A stretch of 64,000 nt of DNA from Thermoleophilaceae bacterium (GTDB taxonomy: Bacteria > Actinomycetota > Thermoleophilia > Solirubrobacterales > Thermoleophilaceae). Under the pieces are notes generated by a model that did not search any database, had not been told where the DNA came from, and saw nothing but the letters and a program-made list of their open reading frames with translations. Where the stretch lies: the NCBI GenBank assembly GCA_030448005.1, contig JAUJNT010000001.1, positions 721,904 to 785,903 of the forward strand, in the 5' to 3' direction. The position numbers and the translations under genes are program-made. Positions 6,005 through 22,077 of the stretch are shown here, piece after piece (position 1 is the stretch's first letter; each line of letters starts with the position of its first letter).

Positions 6005-7591
6005 TTGCACAGCACTCCCTTCCCCCTTCGGCCCCGCACATTCTCGCTCTCCTGGCTGCTGCTCGTCTGCGCCTGCCTGGCCCTGACGCTCTGCGCGGAG
6101 GCGCGGGCCAACCACGCCACGCGCGCCGCGGCGGGCACCGTCTCGACCGATGCCTACAAGCACGTCCGCGGGCTCGGTCCGGCCAAGCGCGCCCAGAAGG
6201 ACCTTCTGAGGGTGAAGCTCGAGGACGACAGCACGGTGGTGACCCACGGCCTCGATCCGGAGCCGGCCGCCCCCGACAGGATCGTCGACCTGGCCGGGCC
6301 CGAGCGCCGGCCCGCATGCGCCTCGGACTTCTTCCAGCACGTCCTCTACGGGTATCCGGCCGGCGCCCCGGACCGCCTCTCGTCGGTCAAGGCGACGATC
6401 CTGGCCGAGATGAAGCGCATGAACGCGCTGCTGAACGAGGAGGCGCTGGCCTCCGGCGGAAGGACCGCCGACTACAAGGTGAAGTGCGCCGGCGACGGCG
6501 AGATCAAGGTCGATGCCTTCCAGAGCGATCAGACGAGCAGCCAGACCACCTTTGCCGGTGTGGTGAGCGCGGCCAGGAAGGCGGGATTCGATGTCTCGAA
6601 CGCCGATTACACGATCTTCTTCGACTCCTCGGCACCGCCGGCCTGTGGGACGGGCACGCTGTCCGATGATCAGCGCCTGACCGCCGAGAACCAGAACAAC
6701 AGCGGTGGCGACTACGCCGTCGTGTACTCCGACTGCTGGACCAACCGCACCGCGATGCACGAGAACGGCCACAACCAGGGGGCGGTCCAGTACGACGCCC
6801 CCTATTCCACGGGCAACGGCGCCCACTGCAACGACGGCTACGACATCATGTGCTACTCCGACGGCGGAGACAGGGACGTCGGCATGAGCGTCTTCTGCTC
6901 GGACAAGATGCGCTTTGACTGCCGCCACGACACGTACTTCGACACCGCTCCCGCAGCCGGTGGGTACCTCGCCACCCATTGGAACCTCGGGTCGCCGCTC
7001 AACCGGTTCATCGCCTTCGATGACGTCGGCGTGCGGGCGCTCGCGTGCCAGGACGGCCTCGACAACGACGGCGACGGCAGGACCGATTACCCGTCGGACC
7101 TCGGCTGCTCCTCCGCGCAGGACGTGGACGAGACCGACATGCCGGCCTGCGGCGACCTCCGGGACAACGACGGCGACGGCCGGAAGGACTACCTCGACGA
7201 CCCGGGCTGCTCCTCGGCCCTCGACAACGACGAGTCGGACCCACCGCTCCCCACAGAGAGGACGGTGGTACAGCCGCCGCCTGCGCCCCTGGCGCCGCCC
7301 CCGCCCGTGACGCCCCCGCCCGCGCCGGTCGTCGCGGCGACGCCGCTGCTGCCCACGCTCACCATGTCGACGGCCCGCAGGTACGCACGGCAGCGCATCA
7401 AGCGCAAGAGCAGGCGGGCTACGGCGATCAGGATCAGCTGCGCCCGGCGGAGTCGCACGAGCGCGACCTGCAAGGTCCGGTGGAGGGTCGGCCGCAGGGC
7501 CGGCTACAGGGGGCGCATGGTCATCAAGTACCGGTTCCGAAGCGGCCGCGCGGCACTCGTGGCCACCTCGCGCCTGACCAGGCTGACCTGA
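6005..7591 (+). CDS. Secreted zinc metalloprotease-like protein with DxDxDG repeats
   Basis: 528-residue exported protein. The TTG start at 6005 follows AAGG by nine bases. A signal sequence (SWLLLVCACLALTLCAEARA) leads into a domain holding HENGHNQGAVQ at about residue 253 and a later YDIMCYSD, which resembles the Met-turn of metzincins. The family motif HExxHxxGxxH is altered: the third His position is Gln, so a different third zinc ligand must be used or activity is reduced. Cys residues (CWTN, HCNDGYD, FCSD, FDCRHD) probably form disulphides. Two acidic, EF-hand/thrombospondin-3-like segments follow (CQDGLDNDGDGRTDYPSD; LRDNDGDGRKDYLDDPGC), then a Pro-rich linker and a basic Cys-containing C-terminal domain. 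It probably acts outside the cell with the neighbouring subtilase. Confidence 0.75.
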   Translation: MHSTPFPLRPRTFSLSWLLLVCACLALTLCAEARANHATRAAAGTVSTDAYKHVRGLGPAKRAQKDLLRVKLEDDSTVVTHGLDPEPAAPDRIVDLAGPERRPACASDFFQHVLYGYPAGAPDRLSSVKATILAEMKRMNALLNEEALASGGRTADYKVKCAGDGEIKVDAFQSDQTSSQTTFAGVVSAARKAGFDVSNADYTIFFDSSAPPACGTGTLSDDQRLTAENQNNSGGDYAVVYSDCWTNRTAMHENGHNQGAVQYDAPYSTGNGAHCNDGYDIMCYSDGGDRDVGMSVFCSDKMRFDCRHDTYFDTAPAAGGYLATHWNLGSPLNRFIAFDDVGVRALACQDGLDNDGDGRTDYPSDLGCSSAQDVDETDMPACGDLRDNDGDGRKDYLDDPGCSSALDNDESDPPLPTERTVVQPPPAPLAPPPPVTPPPAPVVAATPLLPTLTMSTARRYARQRIKRKSRRATAIRISCARRSRTSATCKVRWRVGRRAGYRGRMVIKYRFRSGRAALVATSRLTRLT

Positions 7592-9001: not shown

Positions 9002-12000
9002 TTAGCGGCGGCGGCGCCGGCTCTCCGATCGCCGTCGGACGACGCGCTCGCAGTTGCGGGAGACGACGTCCTTGCGGTCGGCAAGGACCCTGTCACGGCC
9101 GGTTCCGCAGTTCACGCGATCACGTGAGTTGTCGAGCGAGGTGATCCGGTCGTTGCCCGAGTTGCCGCTGATCCGGTCACCGCTCGAATTGCCGTTGATG
9201 CGGTCACCGCCCGAGCCGCCCGCGATCCGGTCGGCGCTGCTTCCACCGGAGATCCGGTCGGCGCTGCTTCCACCGGAGATCCGGTCACGCCCGCGGCTGC
9301 CGGTGATGCGATCCCTGCCGCTCATACCGAGCAGACGGTCGTTGCCGAAGCTCCCGAGCAGCGTGTCGTTGCCAGAGTCGCCCAGAAGCCGGTCGTTGCC
9401 TCGGCCGCCGTCGAGGCGGTCGTTGCCCGAGTTGCCGCGCATCCTGTCGTTGCCAGAGCTGCCGCTCACGCGGTCCCTGCCCGTTCCCGACACCAGCAGG
9501 TCGTTGCCAAGGCCGCCCTGGCCCCGGTCACTGCCCGTCCCGAGATCCACGCAGTCGTTGCCCGCGAGAGCATCGACCACGTCCTTACCCGGACCGGCGA
9601 AGATCCGGTCGGCCCCGGTCGTGCCGGTGATCGAGTTCGCCGCCGCCGTGCCGCGAATCACGTTCGCGGTCAACGTCGGGCAACCCGGGAAAGCGGCTGA
9701 CTCAGCCGGGGGCGGATTTCCAGGGCCAGCCGCGGCCGGCTCCAGCAGGATGAGCCGGTCCAGCACCCCGCTGAGACCCGTGGCCGCCGCCGTGGCCCCG
9801 GCGGTCGAGCTGAGCGGCGGCCTGGAGAGCGCCATGAGGGCGTTGACGCGGCCGACGGTGGAGCCGAGCAGCGCTCCGTCGATCGGCCTGGTCCCGTCGG
9901 CCACGTACATCAGGTTCGTGGGCAGCCCACGCCTGACGGACTCGGCCACGACGGCCTGGGAGGTCGCGTACTGGTCGGCTCCACCGAGGCGCTCGCCTCC
10001 GGGAAGCTCAGCCAGGACGGCGTCACTGACCACCTGGGACCCTCCGATCACCAGCGCCTTGTCGATGTTGAGGTTGCTGATCGCGTCCCTGGTCGCCGCC
10101 GGCAGCGAGTCCCTGTTCGCGAACAGGATCGGAAGGCGCCGGGCGGCTGCAAGCCCCGCCACCGCGACCGCGTCCGGGCTGTCCGGGTTGACGATCGCCA
10201 CCGCGTTGAACGCGGGCGCGTTGGCCGCCTTCTCGGCGTCGGTGCGGCGGTCGAGTTCCTCCGCGACCTGCTGCGCGGTGCCCGCGTCGTCGGCGCCCGC
10301 AAGACGGACGGCATTGTTTGGCAGGCCGTTGGCAACCTGGTCGCCGAGGGCTGAAGTGCCTCCAACTATGTAGGCACCGGCAGGGTTCATCCGGCGCACC
10401 TCGGCCGCGACGCTTGCGGGCAGACCCCCCGGCGGCGAGAGCAGCACCTGGCTCAGGTTGGCCCGGGCCAGCACGCCCGCGGCCAGGATCGCCGGCACGT
10501 CGCCCTCGGGGGCGATCACTACCCGCGTGCCGTTGCGAGTGGCGAACGTGGACGCGAGCAGGCCTTCCCCTCCGCCGGGGTAGGTGTGCTGGGACAGCCG
10601 CACGGATGTCCCGACCGGGTCCGTGCGCTGGAGGTTCTCCTGCGGGACCGAACCACCTCCGTTCATGGTGGCCTTGGCCAGGTAGATGTCCTGGTTGTCG
10701 TTGTCGAAGCTCCCGTTGCGGGAATCCATCCAAGCGATCAGCAGCCGGTCGTTGCCCTGGGGCGCCACGACGGGGCCAAAGTCCCAGCCGGTTCCGAACC
10801 GGTAGTCGTAGCCGACGTCGTTATTGTGCGACCTGTCGCTCACGCGATGGTTCGGACCGAAGCTCGCCCCCCCGTCATCGGACTGCGCGAGGTAGGTGTC
10901 GCCTAGACGGGCCTCCGCGCAGGGCCGGTGGGTGTGGACGCAGCCGCGGTACCAGTGGCGGCGGTCCTGCCACACGATGTCGATTCGCCCGTTGGGCGCT
11001 ACGCCCAGCTCCGGATGACGCGTCTGGGTAAACGCTCTCGGAGGAGCGTACGGCGATTCAGTGCCGGGCTTGGGCGCGGTGTCGTTGATCACCATCGGCG
11101 TCGACCAACCGACTCCCTTGTTGGTCGAGCGCTGGAAGTAGACGTCGCTGTCCGGCGGGATGAAGTGGTCGGCGCCCTGAAAGCCGCCGGCGGGCGCGCC
11201 GGGGGGCGCCTCTCCCTGGTTGTAGACGATGTAGACGTTCCCATTGGGCCCGACCGCGATGCGCGGGAAGGTGGAGCCCGTAGAGGCTTCGGGACGCGGC
11301 GGGTCCGTGCCGGCGGTGCTGGCGAGGTTGCTGACGGTGGCGATCTCCCTGACGCTCCAGCTCCCCTCCCGACCCTGCTCGTCCGAGCGCGCGACCTTGA
11401 GGACTGCCGGGCTGGGCTGCCCCGCCGGCAGCGCGGCTGCCCTAGGTCCGCGAGTGCGCCATGCGACGTACACGCTGCCGTCGGTCGGGTCGATGGCCGG
11501 CTGCGAGACCTCGGCGGGGGTCTCCCCAGGCGGATCCACCACAACCGGCTCGGAGAATGACGCTCCTGAGTTGTCCGAGACGGCCACCACGGCGTCCTCG
11601 AGACGTGGCAGGGTCGAACCCTGGGTGATAACCCTGTGGGCCGCCACGTAGACACGGTCGGCTCCGCCCGGGCCGCCCCCTCGCTGGACCGCGACCGTCG
11701 GGCGCTCGTAGTAGGGGGGCTCCGTGAGGCCGACCGGCATGGCCACCGAGGCGGTGTCCCAGCTACGCCCGCCGTCGGTGGACTTCGCGAGCATGACGCC
11801 CTGGGCCTGCCCGTTCACCCGCCTGGTGCCGTAGGCCGTGTAGACGTCCTGGCCACTGCCGAAGGCGACGGTCTGGAACTGGAAGTCGGCAAGGTGGTCG
11901 CCGATCAAGCTGCAGGCCGGCGCCCAGGGCAGCCCCCCCGCTTCCGCGGGCGGGACGGCGAGGGTATCCGCGGGGCTCCAGGTGGAGCCGCCGTCGAAGC

Positions 12001-12232
12001 TGGCCGTGCCCTCGCACCTCGGGTTGAGGTACTCGGCGTTGATCGCGACCACGTGGTTCGGGTTGCTTGGGTTGACGGCCAGCCCGACCTCATCCTTGCC
12101 GCGAAAGGCGCTCGTGTCCGAGTTCATCTGGAAGTTCTTGCCCACGCGGAGTTGCGCCTGGGCGCCGGGCACGGCTACCAGCAGGGAGCTGGTAGCCATG
12201 ACCAGGGCAAGGAAACGGGCACGCTTCGTCAT
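9002..12232 (-). CDS. Secreted sialidase-fold / cell-wall-binding-2 / RTX-like protein
   Basis: 1076-residue exported protein. Start ATG at 12232 has GGAGG about 10 bases upstream; a signal peptide ends near GAQAQ. Residues about 30-500 carry Asp-box repeats of a sialidase-type beta-propeller (SFDGGSTWSPAD, STDGGRSWDTAS, SDNSGASFSEPV, STNKGVGWSTPM, SDDGGASFGPNH). Residues about 560-830 match the cell-wall-binding repeat 2 family (VVIAPEGDVPAILAAGVLA, IVGGTSALGDQVANGLP, ALVIGGSQVVSDAVLAEL). The last 200 residues are RTX-like repeats (GNDRLDGGRGNDRLLGDSGN), ending in NCGTGRDRVLADRKDVV...CERV. Catalytic sialidase residues were not identified, so the propeller may bind rather than cleave. The gene follows the 12272-12850 gene with a 39-base gap, so they are probably co-transcribed. 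Confidence 0.83.
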   Translation of the reverse strand: MTKRARFLALVMATSSLLVAVPGAQAQLRVGKNFQMNSDTSAFRGKDEVGLAVNPSNPNHVVAINAEYLNPRCEGTASFDGGSTWSPADTLAVPPAEAGGLPWAPACSLIGDHLADFQFQTVAFGSGQDVYTAYGTRRVNGQAQGVMLAKSTDGGRSWDTASVAMPVGLTEPPYYERPTVAVQRGGGPGGADRVYVAAHRVITQGSTLPRLEDAVVAVSDNSGASFSEPVVVDPPGETPAEVSQPAIDPTDGSVYVAWRTRGPRAAALPAGQPSPAVLKVARSDEQGREGSWSVREIATVSNLASTAGTDPPRPEASTGSTFPRIAVGPNGNVYIVYNQGEAPPGAPAGGFQGADHFIPPDSDVYFQRSTNKGVGWSTPMVINDTAPKPGTESPYAPPRAFTQTRHPELGVAPNGRIDIVWQDRRHWYRGCVHTHRPCAEARLGDTYLAQSDDGGASFGPNHRVSDRSHNNDVGYDYRFGTGWDFGPVVAPQGNDRLLIAWMDSRNGSFDNDNQDIYLAKATMNGGGSVPQENLQRTDPVGTSVRLSQHTYPGGGEGLLASTFATRNGTRVVIAPEGDVPAILAAGVLARANLSQVLLSPPGGLPASVAAEVRRMNPAGAYIVGGTSALGDQVANGLPNNAVRLAGADDAGTAQQVAEELDRRTDAEKAANAPAFNAVAIVNPDSPDAVAVAGLAAARRLPILFANRDSLPAATRDAISNLNIDKALVIGGSQVVSDAVLAELPGGERLGGADQYATSQAVVAESVRRGLPTNLMYVADGTRPIDGALLGSTVGRVNALMALSRPPLSSTAGATAAATGLSGVLDRLILLEPAAAGPGNPPPAESAAFPGCPTLTANVIRGTAAANSITGTTGADRIFAGPGKDVVDALAGNDCVDLGTGSDRGQGGLGNDLLVSGTGRDRVSGSSGNDRMRGNSGNDRLDGGRGNDRLLGDSGNDTLLGSFGNDRLLGMSGRDRITGSRGRDRISGGSSADRISGGSSADRIAGGSGGDRINGNSSGDRISGNSGNDRITSLDNSRDRVNCGTGRDRVLADRKDVVSRNCERVVRRRSESRRRRR

Positions 12233-13039: not shown

Positions 13040-14593
13040 TCATCGCGGCACGGGTTTGCCCCTCCTCGAGAGGCCGAGCGCAAGTGATGCAAGGCCCGCG
13101 AGCACCGCCGCCAAGCCGCCCACCAGCAGGGCCTTCTGGGCCGCGGTGCGCACTCCCGGCTCCTCGAAGACCACGCGCGCGCTGCCGATATCCTGCTTGT
13201 TCGAGTCGATCGACCCCGAGCGCGTGTCGCTCCAGACGGCAAGCGCGGATGAGTCGTCGGACACCAGGCCGAGTCGGCTTCCCAGGTCCGGCAGCTCTCG
13301 CTCGTTGCCGTATCCCACCCGCGAGTCGAAGGCCCGCCCCGACAGCCGGATCCTGGCGCCGAAGCTCTCGCCATGGTCGAACGAGGACTGCAGCGAGACC
13401 TCGTTCACCAGGTCCCTGGCGTCGGCGCGACGGTCGTAGTAGACGACGTCCAGGCGGCCGCCCGGCGCCACGTCGAGCCGCGGCAGGTACTGCGAGGTGC
13501 CATCCCGCTCGGGCGTGTCGTTCACGCGCGTCGGCCCCTCCCACGCGCTACCGCCGGAGGGGCGGGACCAGACCAGCACGTCGGACTTCCCCATCCGCCC
13601 GTCCTGAAAGCCCGCGTACACCCTGCCGTCGCGGGCATCGACCGCCACGGAGGGAAACGGGGGTAGGAATGCGACGAATCGCTCCGTCGGCACCAGGTTG
13701 TCCTCGACCTCCGATTCCTCCCAGGTGGCTCCGCGATCGAGCGACCGCGCCAGGACGAGCTTGAAGCGTCCGGAGTAGGGACGCCCGCCTCGCCCCCGGT
13801 GCTCCCCCTCGTAATCGAGCCGGTCGTCGCCGAGGTCGAGATAGAGCACGTAGACCTCCCCCTTGGGCCCGACGGCCATGGCCGGCGCGAGGGCGCGCGC
13901 CCTCGCCGCCGGGTTCACGCGGACGGGGCGCTCCCAGCTTGCCCCGCCGTCGCTCGATCGGGACACGAGGATGGGGTTGCCGGGCGCAGAGAACTTGAAG
14001 AGCCCCACGTCCGTGTCGGCTCGCACGTAGCTCAGGTAGAGCCGGCTCCTGTTCTTCGGATCCGCGGTGAGGCGGACCTGGAAGGCGAGCCGGCCGAGGA
14101 GCTTGCGCGGCTTCGAGAACGTGCGGCCTCCATCGCCCGAGCTGACGTACCACCCTGCACTCGGCACGTTCCCCCTGCCCTCGAGCGTCACGTACGACAT
14201 GTGCAGCTTGCCGTCCCTGGTGAACGTGGCATCCGGCGCGAAGCACTTGGGCTCCTCCCCCTTCGGAATCTCCACCGGAACCCCCGACCACTTCGTGCCG
14301 CCGTCGAAGGAGACATGCACGCCGCAGGCATAACGGGGCCCGTCGACCCGATTGACGACCACGAGGTTGTCGGGCCTCCTCGGGTTGCGGACGATCGTCG
14401 GCGAGTTGTTGGCGCGTATGTCCCCCTGGCTGTCGGCGCCCTCGTTCACGGGCACGTCGCCGGCCGGGATCGTGGGCGTCGGATCCGTGTCGGTGAAGGC
14501 CGAGATCGCGATCGCCACGGCTCCCGCGAGCACCAGCCCGACGGCGACCGGCCACCGGCGCCACTGCCTCAAGAGCTCTTGCGCGCGGATCAC
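13040..14593 (-). CDS. Membrane-anchored sialidase-fold (Asp-box) protein
   Basis: 517 residues. Start GTG at 14593 follows AGGGGGG. An N-terminal hydrophobic helix (WPVAVGLVLAGAVAIAISAF) acts as signal or anchor. The body carries Asp-box repeats of a six-bladed propeller (SFDGGTKWSG, SGDGGRTFSK, SSDGGASWER, SLDRGATWEE, SFDHGESFGA), and a second helix (ALLVGGLAAVLAGLASLALGL) lies before the basic C-terminus RRGKPVPR. It resembles the propeller part of the 9002-12232 protein (shared NxPTIVRNPxxPDNLVVVN-like text), so the two are probably paralogues with different anchors: membrane here, wall-binding there. Substrate unknown; the sialidase Arg triad and Tyr could not be placed. Confidence 0.75.
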   Translation of the reverse strand: MIRAQELLRQWRRWPVAVGLVLAGAVAIAISAFTDTDPTPTIPAGDVPVNEGADSQGDIRANNSPTIVRNPRRPDNLVVVNRVDGPRYACGVHVSFDGGTKWSGVPVEIPKGEEPKCFAPDATFTRDGKLHMSYVTLEGRGNVPSAGWYVSSGDGGRTFSKPRKLLGRLAFQVRLTADPKNRSRLYLSYVRADTDVGLFKFSAPGNPILVSRSSDGGASWERPVRVNPAARARALAPAMAVGPKGEVYVLYLDLGDDRLDYEGEHRGRGGRPYSGRFKLVLARSLDRGATWEESEVEDNLVPTERFVAFLPPFPSVAVDARDGRVYAGFQDGRMGKSDVLVWSRPSGGSAWEGPTRVNDTPERDGTSQYLPRLDVAPGGRLDVVYYDRRADARDLVNEVSLQSSFDHGESFGARIRLSGRAFDSRVGYGNERELPDLGSRLGLVSDDSSALAVWSDTRSGSIDSNKQDIGSARVVFEEPGVRTAAQKALLVGGLAAVLAGLASLALGLSRRGKPVPR

Positions 14594-14717: not shown

Positions 14718-16799
14718 TCAGCTCCGCTGCCTCGGATCGAGCACGATGGCAACCGCGTCGTCTTGCAGGGGCTCCTCCGCTGCCTCCATGGTCGCCTCTT
14801 GGATCGCCCTGGCGATGGCCGTCGCGGAGCGGCTCGGCGCCGACCGGACGGCCCGCTCGATCCCGTCGAGACCGAAGAGCCCGTCCTTCGTGCGGCGGGC
14901 CGTGATGCCATCGGAGTGGAGGATCAGCAGCTCGCCCTCCTCGAGACGGCGCTGGCGGCGGACGAACCTGCGCTCGCGCTCCATCAACCCCAACGGCAGC
15001 CCGGGCGGGGTGAAGAGCTGCTCGATCGTGTCGTCGGGCCGCAGCACCAGCGGCGGCGGATGGCCGCAATTGACCCAGCTGAAGGTGGAGTAGACGGCAT
15101 GCCAGCGCGCGACGATCGCCGTGACGAAGAACTCGGGCCGCCCGACGTCGTAGGTCACCTCGTGCATCGTCTTGGCGGCGGCTTCGAGGCTTTGGTCGCT
15201 GCGCCGCGCCGCGCGCAGAGCGGCGAGTGCGATGGCGCCCAGGGCCCCGGCGGTCGCGCCCTTGCCGACCGCGTCGGCGATAGCTAGCCAGGCGCCGTCA
15301 CGGTTCTCGACGTAGTCGAACCAGTCTCCACCGACCTCGTAGCTCGGGAGGACGCTCCCGGCGAGCACGCCGGCGCCCAGCCGCGCGATACGCGGTGGCA
15401 GCAGGCTCTGCTGGAGCTCGGCGGCCGCGTGGGTCTCCTTGCGCCGCCTTGCGGCGTCGAGGACGTCCGTGTAACCGCCGGCGAGCTCCATCGCGGCCGC
15501 GCCGTGCCGGCCGAGGTCGAGCAGCGGCTCCTCGGCGGCGCCGAGTGCGAGCAGCAGGCCGATCGCCCGGCCTCGCAGCCACATCGGCACGACGACAACC
15601 CCCGGAAGCTCTCCCTCGACGCGCGCCTTCAGGTCAGGGATGCCGTCCTCGGCCAACTCCGGGCCGAGCGCCAGGGGGGCATCGAGGCGGTCGGGGAACT
15701 CCTCGGGCCCCGCCAGCCGGAGCAGGTGGGTGCCATCGATGTCGAGCACGTAGAGCGCCACCGGGGTGCCGCTGATCCGCCGCGCCTCGGAGACGAACTG
15801 CTCCGGGAAGAGGTGCGGCGGGATCTCGTCGAGGACACGCGCGATGTCGAGCGGGACAGGCGCTCTCTCTCCGAGCTGGCCCGCCGGCCGAAGGCGCTGA
15901 AGCTCCCAGTCCTTCTCCGCGGTGACGTCGGACAGTATTCCCAGGATCCCGTAGACCTCGCCGTCCGTAGCGCAGAGCGGATGCGCCGCGAGCGCGATCC
16001 AGGCAACCGAGCCGGCGCGATCGCGATGTCCCCTGACGCCGGTCTGAGGCTCTTTCGTCTGCACGGCCCGGCTGAGTGGATAGGTGCCTCCTGGGCAGGC
16101 CGAGCCGTCCTCGTAGATCACGTCAAGCCGGGGCTCGGTGAGCTGGTCGCCGACCTCCGCCGTCCCGCTGGGGTCGAGGAAGCGAACAGCGCGAGGATTG
16201 ATGGAGAGCAGTGCGCCCTTTGGGTCGAGCAGGACGAGCCCTTGGTCAAGTGGCTCGCTGACCGAGTGAAAGAGTGCCTCCGGGGCAGGCCCGTCGGCGC
16301 CCGTTCCGGCCTCGAGGCAAGCGTCCAAGAAGTGGACGGACGCGGTTTCGAGCAAGTCCGCAGGTGGGCTCGGGCCGATCTCCGCAGCTCGCCGCAGCCA
16401 CTCGATCAGGGGCAGCATCGCGGCGGCCGCTTTGCGCCCCTGCCGCGCGAGCGGCACCAGCCCGAGTAGATCGAGGCGCCGCTCGCCTGCGAGGTCGACG
16501 AGCGCGCCGACGAGGGCCCGCAGCACGGCAAGTGGCGGCCGGTCGGGGGTCACCGTCTCCTCGACCGTCCTCTGGACCGCCGCGAGCGCGTCCTGTCGCA
16601 GTGCGTCCTCGAGCGAGTCGCGCGTCGGGAAGTGCCTGTAGAGGGTCGAGCGGCTCACCCCCGCCGTGACCGCGAGCGTCTGCATGTTGAGCTCGCCTTC
16701 GCGCGGAAGCGCGCTAACGGCCGCTCTCAGGATCGCCGCCCGGTTCTTTTGGGCATCCGAGCGCCGGCTGCGCGATCGGCCCTGCGCGCGGTCGGTCAC
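14718..16799 (-). CDS. TetR-type HTH / PAS / GAF / SpoIIE (PP2C) phosphatase fusion
   Basis: 693 residues from the GTG at 16799; an in-frame ATG at 16889 would add 30 residues. Residues 15-165 form a TetR-like N-terminus with helix-turn-helix (LAVTAGVSRSTLYRHF at 42-57). A PAS domain spans about 175-300 (GLVLLDPKGALLSINPRA; YGILGILSDVTAEKD). A GAF-like domain spans about 320-445. A SpoIIE/RsbU-type PP2C domain spans about 460-690 with its metal-binding Asp motifs intact: GGDWFDY, IADAVGKGATAG, NCGHPPP, LILHSDGI, QDDAVAIVL. SpoIIE-type phosphatases normally act on anti-sigma-factor antagonists. Here the sensor-phosphatase carries its own DNA-binding head, an unusual order. It is transcribed away from the envelope operon at 17007, which it may control. 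Confidence 0.88.
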   Translation of the reverse strand: MTDRAQGRSRSRRSDAQKNRAAILRAAVSALPREGELNMQTLAVTAGVSRSTLYRHFPTRDSLEDALRQDALAAVQRTVEETVTPDRPPLAVLRALVGALVDLAGERRLDLLGLVPLARQGRKAAAAMLPLIEWLRRAAEIGPSPPADLLETASVHFLDACLEAGTGADGPAPEALFHSVSEPLDQGLVLLDPKGALLSINPRAVRFLDPSGTAEVGDQLTEPRLDVIYEDGSACPGGTYPLSRAVQTKEPQTGVRGHRDRAGSVAWIALAAHPLCATDGEVYGILGILSDVTAEKDWELQRLRPAGQLGERAPVPLDIARVLDEIPPHLFPEQFVSEARRISGTPVALYVLDIDGTHLLRLAGPEEFPDRLDAPLALGPELAEDGIPDLKARVEGELPGVVVVPMWLRGRAIGLLLALGAAEEPLLDLGRHGAAAMELAGGYTDVLDAARRRKETHAAAELQQSLLPPRIARLGAGVLAGSVLPSYEVGGDWFDYVENRDGAWLAIADAVGKGATAGALGAIALAALRAARRSDQSLEAAAKTMHEVTYDVGRPEFFVTAIVARWHAVYSTFSWVNCGHPPPLVLRPDDTIEQLFTPPGLPLGLMERERRFVRRQRRLEEGELLILHSDGITARRTKDGLFGLDGIERAVRSAPSRSATAIARAIQEATMEAAEEPLQDDAVAIVLDPRQRS

Positions 16800-16904
16800 C
16801 AACGATCCCCGCCGCTCCCCAGCGGTCCGGCTGCCGGGTGGTGGCCCCCAACCCTTAATGGGACAGCGGGCTCGCTTGCCGGCGGGCATCGTCTCACTTT
16901 GTTC

Positions 16905-18130: not shown

Positions 18131-18553
18131 ATGCCAGGCGAGAACTCGCAGGGCGACCCTCGCGAGCGGCCGGTCGGCGAGCTCCTCAAGGAGCTCTCGA
18201 ACCAGACGTCGACGCTCGTGCGCAAGGAGCTCGAGCTGGCGAAGGCCGAGATGGCCGAGAAGGGAAAGCAGGCGGGCCTCGGCGCCGGGATGTTCGGCGG
18301 CGCCGGCATCGTCGGGCTGCTCGCACTCGGCTCGCTGACCGCCTGCCTGATCGCCGCGCTCGACACCGGCATGGAGCTGTGGCTCGCCGCGCTGATCGTG
18401 ACGGTGGTGTACGGGGCGATCGCCGGGGTGCTGGCCTTGGTCGGCAAGCAGAAGACACAGGAGGCGATCCCCCCTGCGCCGGAACAGGCAATCGACAGCA
18501 CGAAGGAGGATGTCCAATGGGCAAAGACCCAGGCGAAATCCGCGAAGAGATAG
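18131..18553 (+). CDS. Phage holin family protein (holin-X type), copy 1
   Basis: 140 residues. ATG at 18131 behind GGAAGGAGG. The N-terminal helix (VGELLKELSNQTSTLVRKEL, then ELAKAEMAEKGKQAG) followed by two membrane segments (MFGGAGIVGLLALGSLTACL; LWLAALIVTVVYGAIAGVLA) and a short charged tail (PEQAIDSTKEDVQWAKTQA) matches the actinobacterial holin-X/DUF1469-like family. Despite the name these are usually chromosomal membrane proteins, not lysis genes. Its end overlaps the start of the DUF3618 gene by 37 bases. A paralogue lies at 19116-19778. Confidence 0.82.
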   Translation: MPGENSQGDPRERPVGELLKELSNQTSTLVRKELELAKAEMAEKGKQAGLGAGMFGGAGIVGLLALGSLTACLIAALDTGMELWLAALIVTVVYGAIAGVLALVGKQKTQEAIPPAPEQAIDSTKEDVQWAKTQAKSAKR

Positions 18554-19068
18554 AGCAGACTCGCGGCGAGATGGGCGAGACGGTCGAGGCGCTTGGCTAC
18601 AAGGCCGACGTCAAGACACGCACGAAGGAGAAGATCACCGGCAAGCGCGACCAGCTGAAGGAGCGCGTGACGCGCACTGGTTCACGTGCCGGCGACGCGA
18701 CGCCGGACGCCGAGCAGGTCAAGCAGAGCGCAAAGCAGGCCGCCGGGGTCGCGCAGGAGAACCCGCTCGGCCTTGCCCTCGGCTCGGTCGCCGTGGGCTT
18801 TGTCGCCGGTCTGCTGATCCCGTCGACGCGCGTCGAGCACGAGAAGATCGGCCCGATGGCCGACCAGGTCAAGCAGCGCGCGAAGGAGACCGGTCAAGAG
18901 GCGCTCGAGCACGGCAAGGAGGTTGCACAGGACGCTGCCCAGAGCGTCAAGGAGACCGCACAGCAGAGCGGCCAGGAGCACGCCGAGGAGCTGCGCGGAA
19001 GCGTCCAGGAGAAGGCTCAGCAGGCGAAGGAGGACGTCAGGCAGAGCTCTCCGGGCTCGATTGGGTGA
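18517..19068 (+). CDS. DUF3618 family protein, copy 1
   Basis: 183 residues. ATG at 18517, inside the end of the holin-X gene in another frame, with GAAGGAGG upstream. The N-terminus has the family signature (IREEIEQTRGEMGETVEALG, then YKADVKTRTKEK). One membrane segment (GLALGSVAVGFVAGLLIPS) lies at about 89-107, and the C-terminal 70 residues form a Gln/Glu/Lys-rich amphipathic helix (EKIGPMADQVKQRAKETGQE). The protein is longer than the copy at 19846 because of this tail. Function of DUF3618 is unknown; it is repeatedly found beside holin-X genes in actinobacteria. Confidence 0.82.
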   Translation: MGKDPGEIREEIEQTRGEMGETVEALGYKADVKTRTKEKITGKRDQLKERVTRTGSRAGDATPDAEQVKQSAKQAAGVAQENPLGLALGSVAVGFVAGLLIPSTRVEHEKIGPMADQVKQRAKETGQEALEHGKEVAQDAAQSVKETAQQSGQEHAEELRGSVQEKAQQAKEDVRQSSPGSIG

Positions 19069-19115: not shown

Positions 19116-19778
19116 ATGGCAGGAAGAGGAATGTCGGGCCGGGGACGGCAGCGCGGGAAGGGCGGCGCGCGGCGGGAGACGCCACAGGAGGCGCGGGAGC
19201 GGATGACGAGGGCTCACCGTGCCGAAGCGCGCTCGCGCCAGCCGGCAAGCGACGTCGGAGGCGCGGAAGAGAGGGACCAGCCGGCGAGGTTCGCCGATCG
19301 CCCAAGGCCCGATGACGCGCCGGTGCATCGAAGCCCGGTGGCCACGACGCCAGACCGGCGCGAGCAGGCAGACGAACCGCCTGCGTCGGACTCACAAGAC
19401 GCCTCGGCCGCCGAGCTCGTAAAGCAGCTCACCGAGCAGACGAAGACGCTCGTCAAGCAGGAGATGCGCCTGGCGCAGGTCGAGCTGCAGGAGAAGGGAA
19501 AGAAGCTCGGGCTCGGCGCCGGCATGTTCGGCGCGGGCGGCCTCGTTGCCTTCTTCGGCACGGCGGCGCTGATCGTCGCGCTCGTGCTCGCCCTCTCGAC
19601 CGCGCTCGCGCCCTGGCTGGCGGCGCTGATCGTCGGCGTGCTGCTGCTCGCAGTCGCCGGCGGGGCGGCGGTGATGGGCAAGAAGCAGATCGAGCAGGCG
19701 ACGCCGCCTGTGCCAGAGCAGACCGTGGAGACAGTGAAGGAGGACGTCGAGCACGTGAAGAGCAGCGCGAAGCGATGA
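19116..19778 (+). CDS. Phage holin family protein (holin-X type), copy 2, with long N-terminal arm
   Basis: 220 residues. ATG at 19116 behind GGAGGTGCAGGGACG. Residues about 95-220 are closely related to copy 1 (ELVKQLTEQTKTLVKQEMRL; GLGAGMFGAGGLVAFFGTAAL; PVPEQTVETVKEDVEHVK). The first 95 residues are an added, disordered arm rich in Arg, Gly, Asp and Pro. Two membrane segments are visible. Together with the next gene this repeats the holin-X/DUF3618 pair, so the operon has probably grown by duplication of a two-gene unit. Confidence 0.8.
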   Translation: MAGRGMSGRGRQRGKGGARRETPQEARERMTRAHRAEARSRQPASDVGGAEERDQPARFADRPRPDDAPVHRSPVATTPDRREQADEPPASDSQDASAAELVKQLTEQTKTLVKQEMRLAQVELQEKGKKLGLGAGMFGAGGLVAFFGTAALIVALVLALSTALAPWLAALIVGVLLLAVAGGAAVMGKKQIEQATPPVPEQTVETVKEDVEHVKSSAKR

Positions 19779-19845
19779 GGAACTCAACCCAACAGCGCAA
19801 CGGGCCGGCGCAGGCGCCGGATCGCCAGCGCGGGAGGCGGTCTTG

Positions 19846-20205
19846 ATGCAGGAAGAAGGAGCCGCGCGCGAAGCCGAGCCAACCGAGCCGGAACAGATCA
19901 GGGCCGAGATCGAGGAGACCCGCGAGGAGCTCGGTGAAACGGTCGAGGCACTCGCCGAGAAGGCAGACGTCAAGTCGCAGGCCAAAGCCAAGGTCGACGA
20001 GCGCAAGCAGGTGCTCAAGGAAAAGCAGCAGGAGCTGAAAGGGAAGGCAAGCGACCTCCCGCGCCGAGCGCGCGAGGTCAAACCGGAGGATGCAAAGCGC
20101 ATGGCGTCCCAGGCGGCCGAGACGGCACGGGCAAGACCGGGTCCGACGATGGCCGCGACGCTGGTGCTCGCGCTCCTGCTGCTGCGTCTGTTCAGAAGGG
20201 ACTAA
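19846..20205 (+). CDS. DUF3618 family protein, copy 2
   Basis: 119 residues from ATG 19846 (an in-frame TTG precedes it). Signature IRAEIEETREELGETVEALA, then EKADVKSQAKAKVDERKQ. A single C-terminal membrane segment (TMAATLVLALLLLRLF) ends in RRD, so it lacks the amphipathic tail of copy 1. The last 30 bases and the next start are close, consistent with one transcript. Confidence 0.78.
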   Translation: MQEEGAAREAEPTEPEQIRAEIEETREELGETVEALAEKADVKSQAKAKVDERKQVLKEKQQELKGKASDLPRRAREVKPEDAKRMASQAAETARARPGPTMAATLVLALLLLRLFRRD

Positions 20206-20619: not shown

Positions 20620-21642
20620 ATGGCGCGAGTGGCAGACATGAAGGGACCGGGGTCTGACGACCGGTCCGGCGACCGCGAGAAGCGCTCCGGGCGCCGGCCC
20701 GAGGGCCCCGCGCACAAGAGCAAGGGCGGGCTGATGCAGACACTCAAGCGCACGGTCACGGAGTTCAAGGAGGACGAGCTCACCGACAGGGCGGCGGCGC
20801 TCACCTACTACGCGGTGCTGTCGATCTTCCCCGCGTTGATCGCGCTAGTGTCGGTGGTGGGGCTGATCGGTGACCCGAAGACCATCACCAAGGCACTCAC
20901 CGATGTCGTCAGCTCGGTGGGCCCCGCCTCCGCGGTCGAGCCGCTCAAGGGCCCGATCGAGGGCCTCACCAAGAGCTCTGGCACGGCGGGCATCGCGCTG
21001 ATCGTCGGCCTGGCCTCCGCGCTGTGGACGGCCTCGGGCTATGTCGGGGCCTTCATGCGCGCCTCGAACGTGATCTACGAGGTCGAGGAGGGGCGCTCGT
21101 TCATCAAGCTGCGGCCGCTGCAGATGCTCGTCACGCTCGTGCTGATCATCCTGCTCGCGCTCGTCCTGGTCGCGCTCGTGCTGACGGGCCCGATCGCCAA
21201 GCAGGTCGGCTCGGCGGTGGGCATCGGTAGCAGCGCGATCACGATCTGGAACATCGCCAAGTGGCCGGTGCTTGCGGCGATCGTGCTGTTCATGTTCGCG
21301 CTGCTCTACTACACCTCGCCAAACGCGAAGCTGCCTGGCTTCAAGCTCGTCACCCCCGGAGCGCTGCTTGCGATCGTCGTCTGGCTCGTCGCCTCGGCGG
21401 CGTTTGCCTTCTACGTCGCCAACTTCGGCTCCTACAACAAGACCTACGGTACCTTGGCCGGCGTGATCATCTTCCTCGTCTGGCTGTGGATCACAAACGT
21501 CGCGATCCTGCTCGGGGCAGAGCTGAACGCCGAGAGCGAGCGCAGCCGCGAGCTAAAGGCCGGAACGCCCGGAGCCGAGCGAGAGATACAGCTCGGACAC
21601 CGCGACGAGCCCAAGGACAAAAAGCGCTCCCGAACGGCCTAG
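20620..21642 (+). CDS. YihY/BrkB-family inner-membrane protein
   Basis: 340 residues. ATG at 20620 after GAGGGAGGCC. After a charged cytoplasmic arm the family signature appears (LTDRAAALTYYAVLSIFPAL). Six membrane helices are visible (ALIALVSVVGLIG; GIALIVGLASALWTASGYVG; LVTLVLIILLALVLVALVL; WPVLAAIVLFMFALLYY; ALLAIVVWLVASAAFAFYV; AGVIIFLVWLWITNVAIL). GAELNAESE follows the last helix, as usual for the family, then a hydrophilic tail. These proteins were once called ribonuclease BN but are not nucleases; a transport or envelope role is suspected. Last gene of the operon. Confidence 0.9.
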   Translation: MARVADMKGPGSDDRSGDREKRSGRRPEGPAHKSKGGLMQTLKRTVTEFKEDELTDRAAALTYYAVLSIFPALIALVSVVGLIGDPKTITKALTDVVSSVGPASAVEPLKGPIEGLTKSSGTAGIALIVGLASALWTASGYVGAFMRASNVIYEVEEGRSFIKLRPLQMLVTLVLIILLALVLVALVLTGPIAKQVGSAVGIGSSAITIWNIAKWPVLAAIVLFMFALLYYTSPNAKLPGFKLVTPGALLAIVVWLVASAAFAFYVANFGSYNKTYGTLAGVIIFLVWLWITNVAILLGAELNAESERSRELKAGTPGAEREIQLGHRDEPKDKKRSRTA

Positions 21643-21804: not shown

Positions 21805-22077
21805 CTACTCCCCCTGCCCGGTCTTCCCGATCCAGGTGCCCTCGGACTTTGCGGCCGCGACGCGCAGGCTGCGGTCGATCGCCATGCGAGCGAGCTTGTA
21901 GAGCGTCCCTTCGAGGACCGCCGCCCCGATCAGCGGCGCGAGGCGCACGTTCTCCTGCGCGGTGTCGGGCGCCTCGCTGTTGAACAGCTGGCTCCACAGC
22001 TTGGCGGCGACTTTCTGGCCGACGATGCCGGCGACCACGAGGAAGGGCAACTCCGCTTTGAGAAGGAAGGTCATCAT
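21805..22077 (-). CDS. DUF4235 family small membrane protein
   Basis: 90 residues; starts at the ATG at 22077 or the next codon. Text (LVVAGIVGQKVAAKLWSQLF; APLIGAAVLEGTLYKLARMA; IDRSLRVAAAKSEGTWIGK) matches actinobacterial DUF4235, a small protein with one or two membrane helices. It is convergent with the envelope operon. Function unknown. Confidence 0.75.
   Translation of the reverse strand: MMTFLLKAELPFLVVAGIVGQKVAAKLWSQLFNSEAPDTAQENVRLAPLIGAAVLEGTLYKLARMAIDRSLRVAAAKSEGTWIGKTGQGE

What the first reader, a model, noticed from the sequence alone, without database searches (positions are those of the whole stretch)
14718..16799. DNA-binding TetR head fused to a PAS-GAF-SpoIIE phosphatase
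Seen: one continuous ORF holds a TetR-like helix-turn-helix, a PAS, a GAF-like and a complete PP2C/SpoIIE domain with all metal-binding Asp motifs. Known: SpoIIE/RsbU phosphatases act by protein dephosphorylation in partner-switching sigma control, and TetR proteins are small ligand-sensing repressors. Inferred: this protein may couple direct promoter binding to phosphatase signalling in one chain, as a one-component regulator with enzymatic output. It is transcribed away from an envelope operon, with palindromes between.
Basis: partly seen in the sequence, partly recalled or inferred. Interest (0 to 1): 0.82.

Follow-up and report, generated by a model that had tools for sequence, protein, structure and literature searches.

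The report
TetR DNA-binding head fused to SpoIIE phosphatase
One bacterial protein combines a gene-switching DNA-binding head with a stress-signalling phosphatase, recurs across a whole class of soil actinobacteria beside membrane-stress genes, and has a matching DNA site in its own promoter, which suggests a regulator that sits on DNA and also acts as an enzyme.

Summary
ORF 14718-16799(-) (GTG start; open to ATG 16889) encodes a complete TetR-type regulator fold, a PAS, a GAF-like domain and an intact SpoIIE/PP2C phosphatase. It is not a chance or assembly fusion: all 30 relatives scanned carry TetR_N plus SpoIIE in one chain. The family spans many Thermoleophilia genera. Its commonest form is smaller (~490 aa): the TetR helix-turn-helix alone joined to GAF-SpoIIE. 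The window's long form is one clade, found in one family. HTH-positive genes usually sit beside, and mostly diverge from, membrane/stress genes (YihY/BrkB, Holin-X, DUF3618, DUF4235, PRC-DUF2382, MS-channel helices): 36/51 loci, versus 1/8 for HTH-less cousins. Their promoters share a half-site AASTGRGACA, often as inverted repeats, about 130-fold enriched over the rest of the loci. The window's paired element (16859-16896) is unique in its 3.2-Mb genome, with the same spacing in two near relatives. Best reading: an auto- and divergent-operon regulator whose HTH binds this operator while PAS/GAF-gated phosphatase signals to a STAS/anti-sigma partner. DNA binding has comparative support; phosphatase activity and target are inferred. 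No paper describing the fusion was found in the open-access library. New variant of a known kind.

The parts
14718..16799 (-). Fusion gene TetR-PAS-GAF-SpoIIE, preferred GTG start at 16799 (open frame to ATG 16889)
   Evidence: start choice
16254..16799 (-). Complete TetR-type domain: HTH (about residues 41-94) plus helical ligand-binding-like region to about residue 212
   Evidence: TetR_N; phmmer 2q24 2.2e-11; AF2 plus Foldseek, listed matches all TetR regulators
15912..16253 (-). PAS_4 domain, residues 213-326
   Evidence: Pfam 2.9e-8
15477..15845 (-). GAF-like domain, about residues 349-471
   Evidence: AF2 secondary structure; PF01590 in 5/30 relatives
14736..15299 (-). SpoIIE/PP2C phosphatase domain (Pfam residues 531-718; the GGDWFD motif at 520-525 lies just before it)
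   Evidence: Pfam 3.1e-37; Foldseek 3pu9, 3ke6, 5ucg; conserved Asp
16891..16899 (-). Operator-like half-site AAGTGAGAC
   Evidence: only AASTGRGAC match in the 64-kb window; 133-fold enriched upstream of the family
16857..16866 (+). Second half-site AATGGGACAG, inverted relative to the first
   Evidence: inverted pair 16859-16896 unique in the genome; same spacing in L008 and L010
17586..18128 (+). Divergent small protein of low complexity; similar proteins beside the gene in L009, L084, L137
18131..18553 (+). Holin-X (PF07332)
   Evidence: 1.5e-39
18517..19068 (+). DUF3618 protein
   Evidence: 3e-12
19116..19778 (+). Second Holin-X (PF07332)
   Evidence: 2.2e-38
19843..20205 (+). DUF3618 protein
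   Evidence: 6.7e-15
20620..21642 (+). YihY/BrkB membrane protein (PF03631)
   Evidence: 1.9e-68
21805..22077 (-). DUF4235 protein, recurrent neighbour
   Evidence: 1.1e-12; neighbourhood

Best explanation
The protein is a DNA-binding partner-switching phosphatase. Step 1 (supported by comparison): its TetR-type HTH binds inverted half-sites AASTGRGACA in the promoter between its own gene and a divergent block of membrane/stress genes, and so controls itself and that block, most likely by repression (the sign is inferred). Step 2 (inferred from domains): PAS, GAF and, in the long form, the TetR ligand region sense a cytoplasmic signal. Step 3 (inferred from conserved catalytic residues): the SpoIIE domain dephosphorylates a STAS anti-anti-sigma protein encoded elsewhere, freeing a sigma factor held by an RsbW-type protein. 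A single chain would thus give local promoter control plus a global stress output.
For: Architecture conserved: TetR_N and SpoIIE in 30/30 relatives; about 43 sampled Thermoleophilia genomes have hits reaching the HTH (my count). Recognition-helix residues V78, R80, T82, Y84, R85, H86, F87 at least 93% conserved, and metal-site Asp conserved. Motif: palindrome GRGACA-N3-TGTCYC log-likelihood 77.7 against at most 45.3 in shuffles; leave-one-out 32/56 loci at p<0.05, Fisher p about 1e-30; AASTGRGAC 18 in 15 kb of upstream DNA against 6 in 670 kb of the rest. Window pair unique in genome, with the same 32-bp offset in three related promoters. Motif variant GGGAC/GAGAC tracks a recognition-helix residue, 17:4 against 2:10 loci, p 6e-4. 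Neighbourhood 36/51 HTH+ against 1/8 HTH-, p 0.003; in five genomes the only DUF2382 gene is the neighbour. STAS (5) and RsbW-type HATPase (9) matches exist in the genome.
Against: No binding or enzyme data. The window's own promoter does not score for the N3 palindrome (p 0.19); it has a wider pair. The motif could belong to another regulator or sigma factor. About 40% of loci lack a significant N3 motif and 15/51 lack the neighbours. Loci are phylogenetically related, so p-values overstate. No STAS or RsbW gene was seen among the window's neighbours scanned.
Confidence: 0.6

Rival explanations
1. Phosphatase first: the HTH only autoregulates or tethers the protein near its own gene, and the envelope genes are controlled by the sigma factor released through partner switching rather than by direct binding.
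For: SpoIIE domain conserved, and HTH-less GAF-SpoIIE cousins exist as a clade; a SigB-like GTTT-N-GGGTA pattern is enriched in promoters but only in 5 loci.
Against: The motif lies in the shared divergent region next to the envelope genes; HTH-less cousins lack the neighbours.
Confidence: 0.22
2. The HTH has become a dimerisation or protein-interaction module, and the promoter motif belongs to an unrelated regulator or sigma factor.
For: Minimal forms have no TetR ligand-binding domain, the usual dimer interface; no binding data.
Against: Recognition helix stays conserved; motif type covaries with a recognition-helix residue; no match upstream of HTH-less cousins except the one sharing an HTH+ promoter.
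Confidence: 0.12
3. Artefact of assembly or gene calling, or a recent chance fusion.
For: Source genomes are mostly metagenome-assembled; the L010 copy is frameshifted.
Against: Same fusion in isolate genomes (Solirubrobacter taibaiensis, S. phytolaccae) and many genera.
Confidence: 0.01

Closest known systems
SpoIIE/RsbU-type PPM phosphatases with PAS or GAF sensors (RsbP, RsbZ, OsaC, Rv1364c; surveyed in PMC12143880)
   Same: PAS/GAF sensors in front of a SpoIIE PPM domain with conserved Asp motifs; Foldseek and phmmer hits to Rv1364c and SpoIIE
   Different: N-terminal TetR HTH; operator-like promoter motif; the architectures named in that paper's survey section do not include a DNA-binding domain
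TetR/AcrR one-component repressors (closest solved by sequence: SCO0520, 2q24)
   Same: HTH and, in the long form, full TetR fold; divergent gene arrangement; inverted-repeat candidate operator
   Different: Enzymatic C-terminus; most family members lack the TetR ligand-binding domain
HTH-less GAF-SpoIIE cousins of Thermoleophilia (L130-L136)
   Same: Homologous GAF-SpoIIE core, about 43-46% identity
   Different: No HTH, no promoter motif, no envelope-gene neighbourhood

Membership tests
TetR family | TetR_N HTH above Pfam gathering score | tested here: met
   26.1 bits against 24; 30/30 relatives match at E<=0.01
TetR family | All-helical ligand-binding/dimerisation domain after the HTH | tested here: met
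   Window long form: Foldseek to TetR over about 180 columns. Absent in minimal relatives
TetR family | Binds an inverted-repeat operator | tested here: inconclusive
   Conserved inverted half-sites by comparison; no binding assay possible
SpoIIE/PPM phosphatase | SpoIIE domain with metal-binding Asp motifs | tested here: met
   3.1e-37; D522, D539, D660, D711 aligned with SpoIIE/Rv1364c and conserved in the family
SpoIIE/PPM phosphatase | Dephosphorylates a STAS anti-anti-sigma partner | not testable with these tools
   STAS and RsbW-type domains present in the genome but no linked pair identified
PAS/GAF sensor phosphatase (RsbP/RsbZ-like) | PAS or GAF sensor N-terminal to the phosphatase | tested here: met
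   PAS_4 2.9e-8; GAF in 5/30 relatives and AF2 shape

The most novel reading that the evidence does not exclude
DNA binding is itself an input to the phosphatase. A TetR-type dimer seated on the operator would dimerise or reorient the SpoIIE domains through the GAF linker helix, so promoter occupancy sets partner-switching output, or the reverse: signal-driven dimerisation of the phosphatase sets operator binding. PPM phosphatases are reported to be controlled by linker-mediated dimerisation (PMC12143880); a DNA-binding dimer would be a new kind of input.
Probability: 0.22. Interest if true: 0.82.

Novelty: new variant of a known kind. Interest (0 to 1): 0.64.

Why it matters
Partner-switching phosphatases are normally at least two protein contacts away from DNA. 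A conserved family, present across a bacterial class, puts a promoter-binding head on the phosphatase, with a candidate operator and a defined set of membrane/stress genes. That makes it directly testable whether one chain can join local repression and global sigma control. It also attaches a regulator to poorly understood families (YihY/BrkB, Holin-X, DUF3618, DUF4235, DUF2382).

Tried and rejected
Looked for a genomic regulon of the half-site: AAGTGAGAC occurs three times in the genome, but the copy near a YihY pair (C6:270509) and the one at C1:446054 lie inside coding sequence, so neither supports a second target. The top motif by likelihood (gap 1, AACTGT) appears to be one extended half-site, AACTGAGACA, not a separate palindrome. 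A SigB-like promoter pattern was found in only five loci and not pursued. Helical spacing of half-sites (10, 31-32, 42-43 bp) is suggestive but sparse. The phylum-wide sample gave no family member outside the order; the class sample shows it in two more families, f5 and f7. Papers that named TetR and SpoIIE were checked in part and held nothing on a fusion. My first fixed-gap pattern (N23) was wrong and found nothing; the correct gap is 26.

Full report
Observation. The ORF 14718-16889(-) is uninterrupted. Pfam calls TetR_N, PAS_4 and SpoIIE, all above gathering scores. An AF2 model of residues 31-723 has mean pLDDT 82 and a low-confidence linker between PAS and the GAF-like domain; its best PDB matches are SpoIIE/RsbU-type phosphatases, including the Rv1364c RsbU-RsbW structure and B. 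subtilis SpoIIE. A model of the first 182 residues alone (pLDDT 86) matches only TetR regulators among the listed rows, over nearly its whole length. The N-terminus is therefore a full TetR regulator, not only an HTH.

Distribution. The full four-part order occurs in five further genomes or contigs: L008, L009 (=G220), L010 (=G208), L011 (=G212), L012 (=G211). The L010 copy is split by a frameshift; whether that is a sequencing error or a broken gene cannot be told. Many more relatives carry a minimal form of about 490 aa: HTH, short linker, GAF, SpoIIE. All 30 proteins in alignment A1 match both TetR_N and SpoIIE. In a class sample of 399 genomes, 66 have a match at 1e-30; by my count of the table about 43 genomes have hits that reach the HTH end of the profile. 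A phylum sample of 397 found members only in the window's own order. Isolates Solirubrobacter taibaiensis and S. phytolaccae carry it, so it is not an artefact of metagenome assembly.

Evolution. A tree of 63 GAF-SpoIIE cores puts the long form in one clade (100/99) and the HTH-less cousins in one clade (98/95); minimal forms make up the rest. The root is not known, so the direction (gain of TetR ligand region plus PAS, or loss) is open, but the long form is one event confined to the window's family in this sample.

Neighbourhood. In the window, the gene diverges from Holin-X, DUF3618, Holin-X, DUF3618 and YihY/BrkB genes, with DUF4235 beyond. Across loci, 36 of 51 HTH+ genes have at least one of YihY, Holin-X, DUF3618, DUF4235, PRC-DUF2382 or MS-channel-helix within 4.5 kb, against 1 of 8 HTH-less cousins, and that one sits beside an HTH+ gene (Fisher p 0.003). 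In 28 loci such a gene is upstream and divergent. YihY matches number 2-7 per genome, so single adjacencies are unlikely by chance. More telling, in G211, G122, G077, G081 and G084 the only DUF2382 gene of the genome is the neighbour of a fusion gene. G000, G070 and G066 do not show the DUF2382 adjacency.

Operator. Motif search in 56 upstream regions gave the palindrome GRGACA-N3-TGTCYC (log-likelihood 77.7; best of 12 shuffled sets 45.3) and an extended half-site AASTGRGACA. Leave-one-out scoring, with near-identical upstreams removed from training, gives p<0.05 in 32 of 56 loci, where 2.8 are expected. The half-site AASTGRGAC occurs 18 times in 15 kb of upstream DNA and 6 times in 670 kb of the remaining loci. 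In the window it occurs once in 64 kb, at 16891-16899 (0.93 expected by chance anywhere, so position is what matters). A second, inverted half-site lies at 16857-16866. The pair TGRGAC-N26-GTCYCA has a chance expectation of 0.04 in the window, occurs nowhere else in the genome, and has the same 32-bp offset in L008 and L010; in L010 the second site reads TGTCTCA instead of TGTCCCA, still within the motif. The window's own promoter does not score for the N3 palindrome (p 0.19). Loci with Ser after the conserved Arg of the recognition helix favour GGGACR sites (17 loci against 4), those with Ala or Gly favour GAGACR (10 against 2), p 6e-4. L116 and L119, which lie inside a mostly Ala/Gly-type clade but have Ser, also have only GGGAC sites. 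This is what one expects if the HTH reads the motif. Caveats: the motif was learned from these sequences, relatedness inflates p-values, and another regulator could own the site.

Enzyme. The SpoIIE Asp motifs align with SpoIIE and Rv1364c and are conserved in the family. The genome has five STAS and nine RsbW-type HATPase matches and six SpoIIE domains, so a partner-switching network is available, but nothing links this protein to a specific partner. Activity is inferred.

Mechanism. The best-supported reading is local control of its own and the divergent promoter by the TetR head, combined with PAS/GAF-gated phosphatase output. PPM phosphatases are reported to be regulated by linker-mediated dimerisation (PMC12143880, section read). 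An operator-bound dimer could therefore also set phosphatase activity; this is the novel reading, not shown. The minimal form lacks the TetR dimer domain, so it would need GAF or phosphatase dimerisation to bind a palindrome, which fits such coupling but does not prove it.

Literature. Searches of the open-access library for TetR with SpoIIE, RsbU, Pfam accessions and Solirubrobacter found no description of the fusion. Subscription papers and InterPro were not searchable, so prior mention cannot be excluded.

Noticed in passing
L008 (JAUJMQ010000053.1): A contig binned as Egibacteraceae encodes an 80% identical copy with the same promoter elements; it is probably a mis-binned Thermoleophilia contig.
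   Followed up: partly
L010 about 6881-7000; G208:C5:250500: The closest same-genus copy is split by a frameshift near the PAS domain; sequencing error or pseudogene not resolved.
   Followed up: no
window 9002-12232 (-) and 13040-14593 (-): Two large proteins downstream of the fusion gene: 13040-14593 has BNR/Asp-box sialidase-like repeats; 9002-12232 looks related to it, with calcium-binding-like glycine/aspartate repeats at its C-terminus.
   Followed up: no
G066:C2:339000-342700 (L108): An HTH-less GAF-SpoIIE gene and an HTH-bearing one lie head to head and share a promoter carrying AASTGRGAC motifs.
   Followed up: partly
upstream regions of the family, e.g. L093, L086, L095: Half-site spacings cluster near 10, 31-32 and 42-43 bp, hinting at helical phasing of several sites on one DNA face.
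   Followed up: partly
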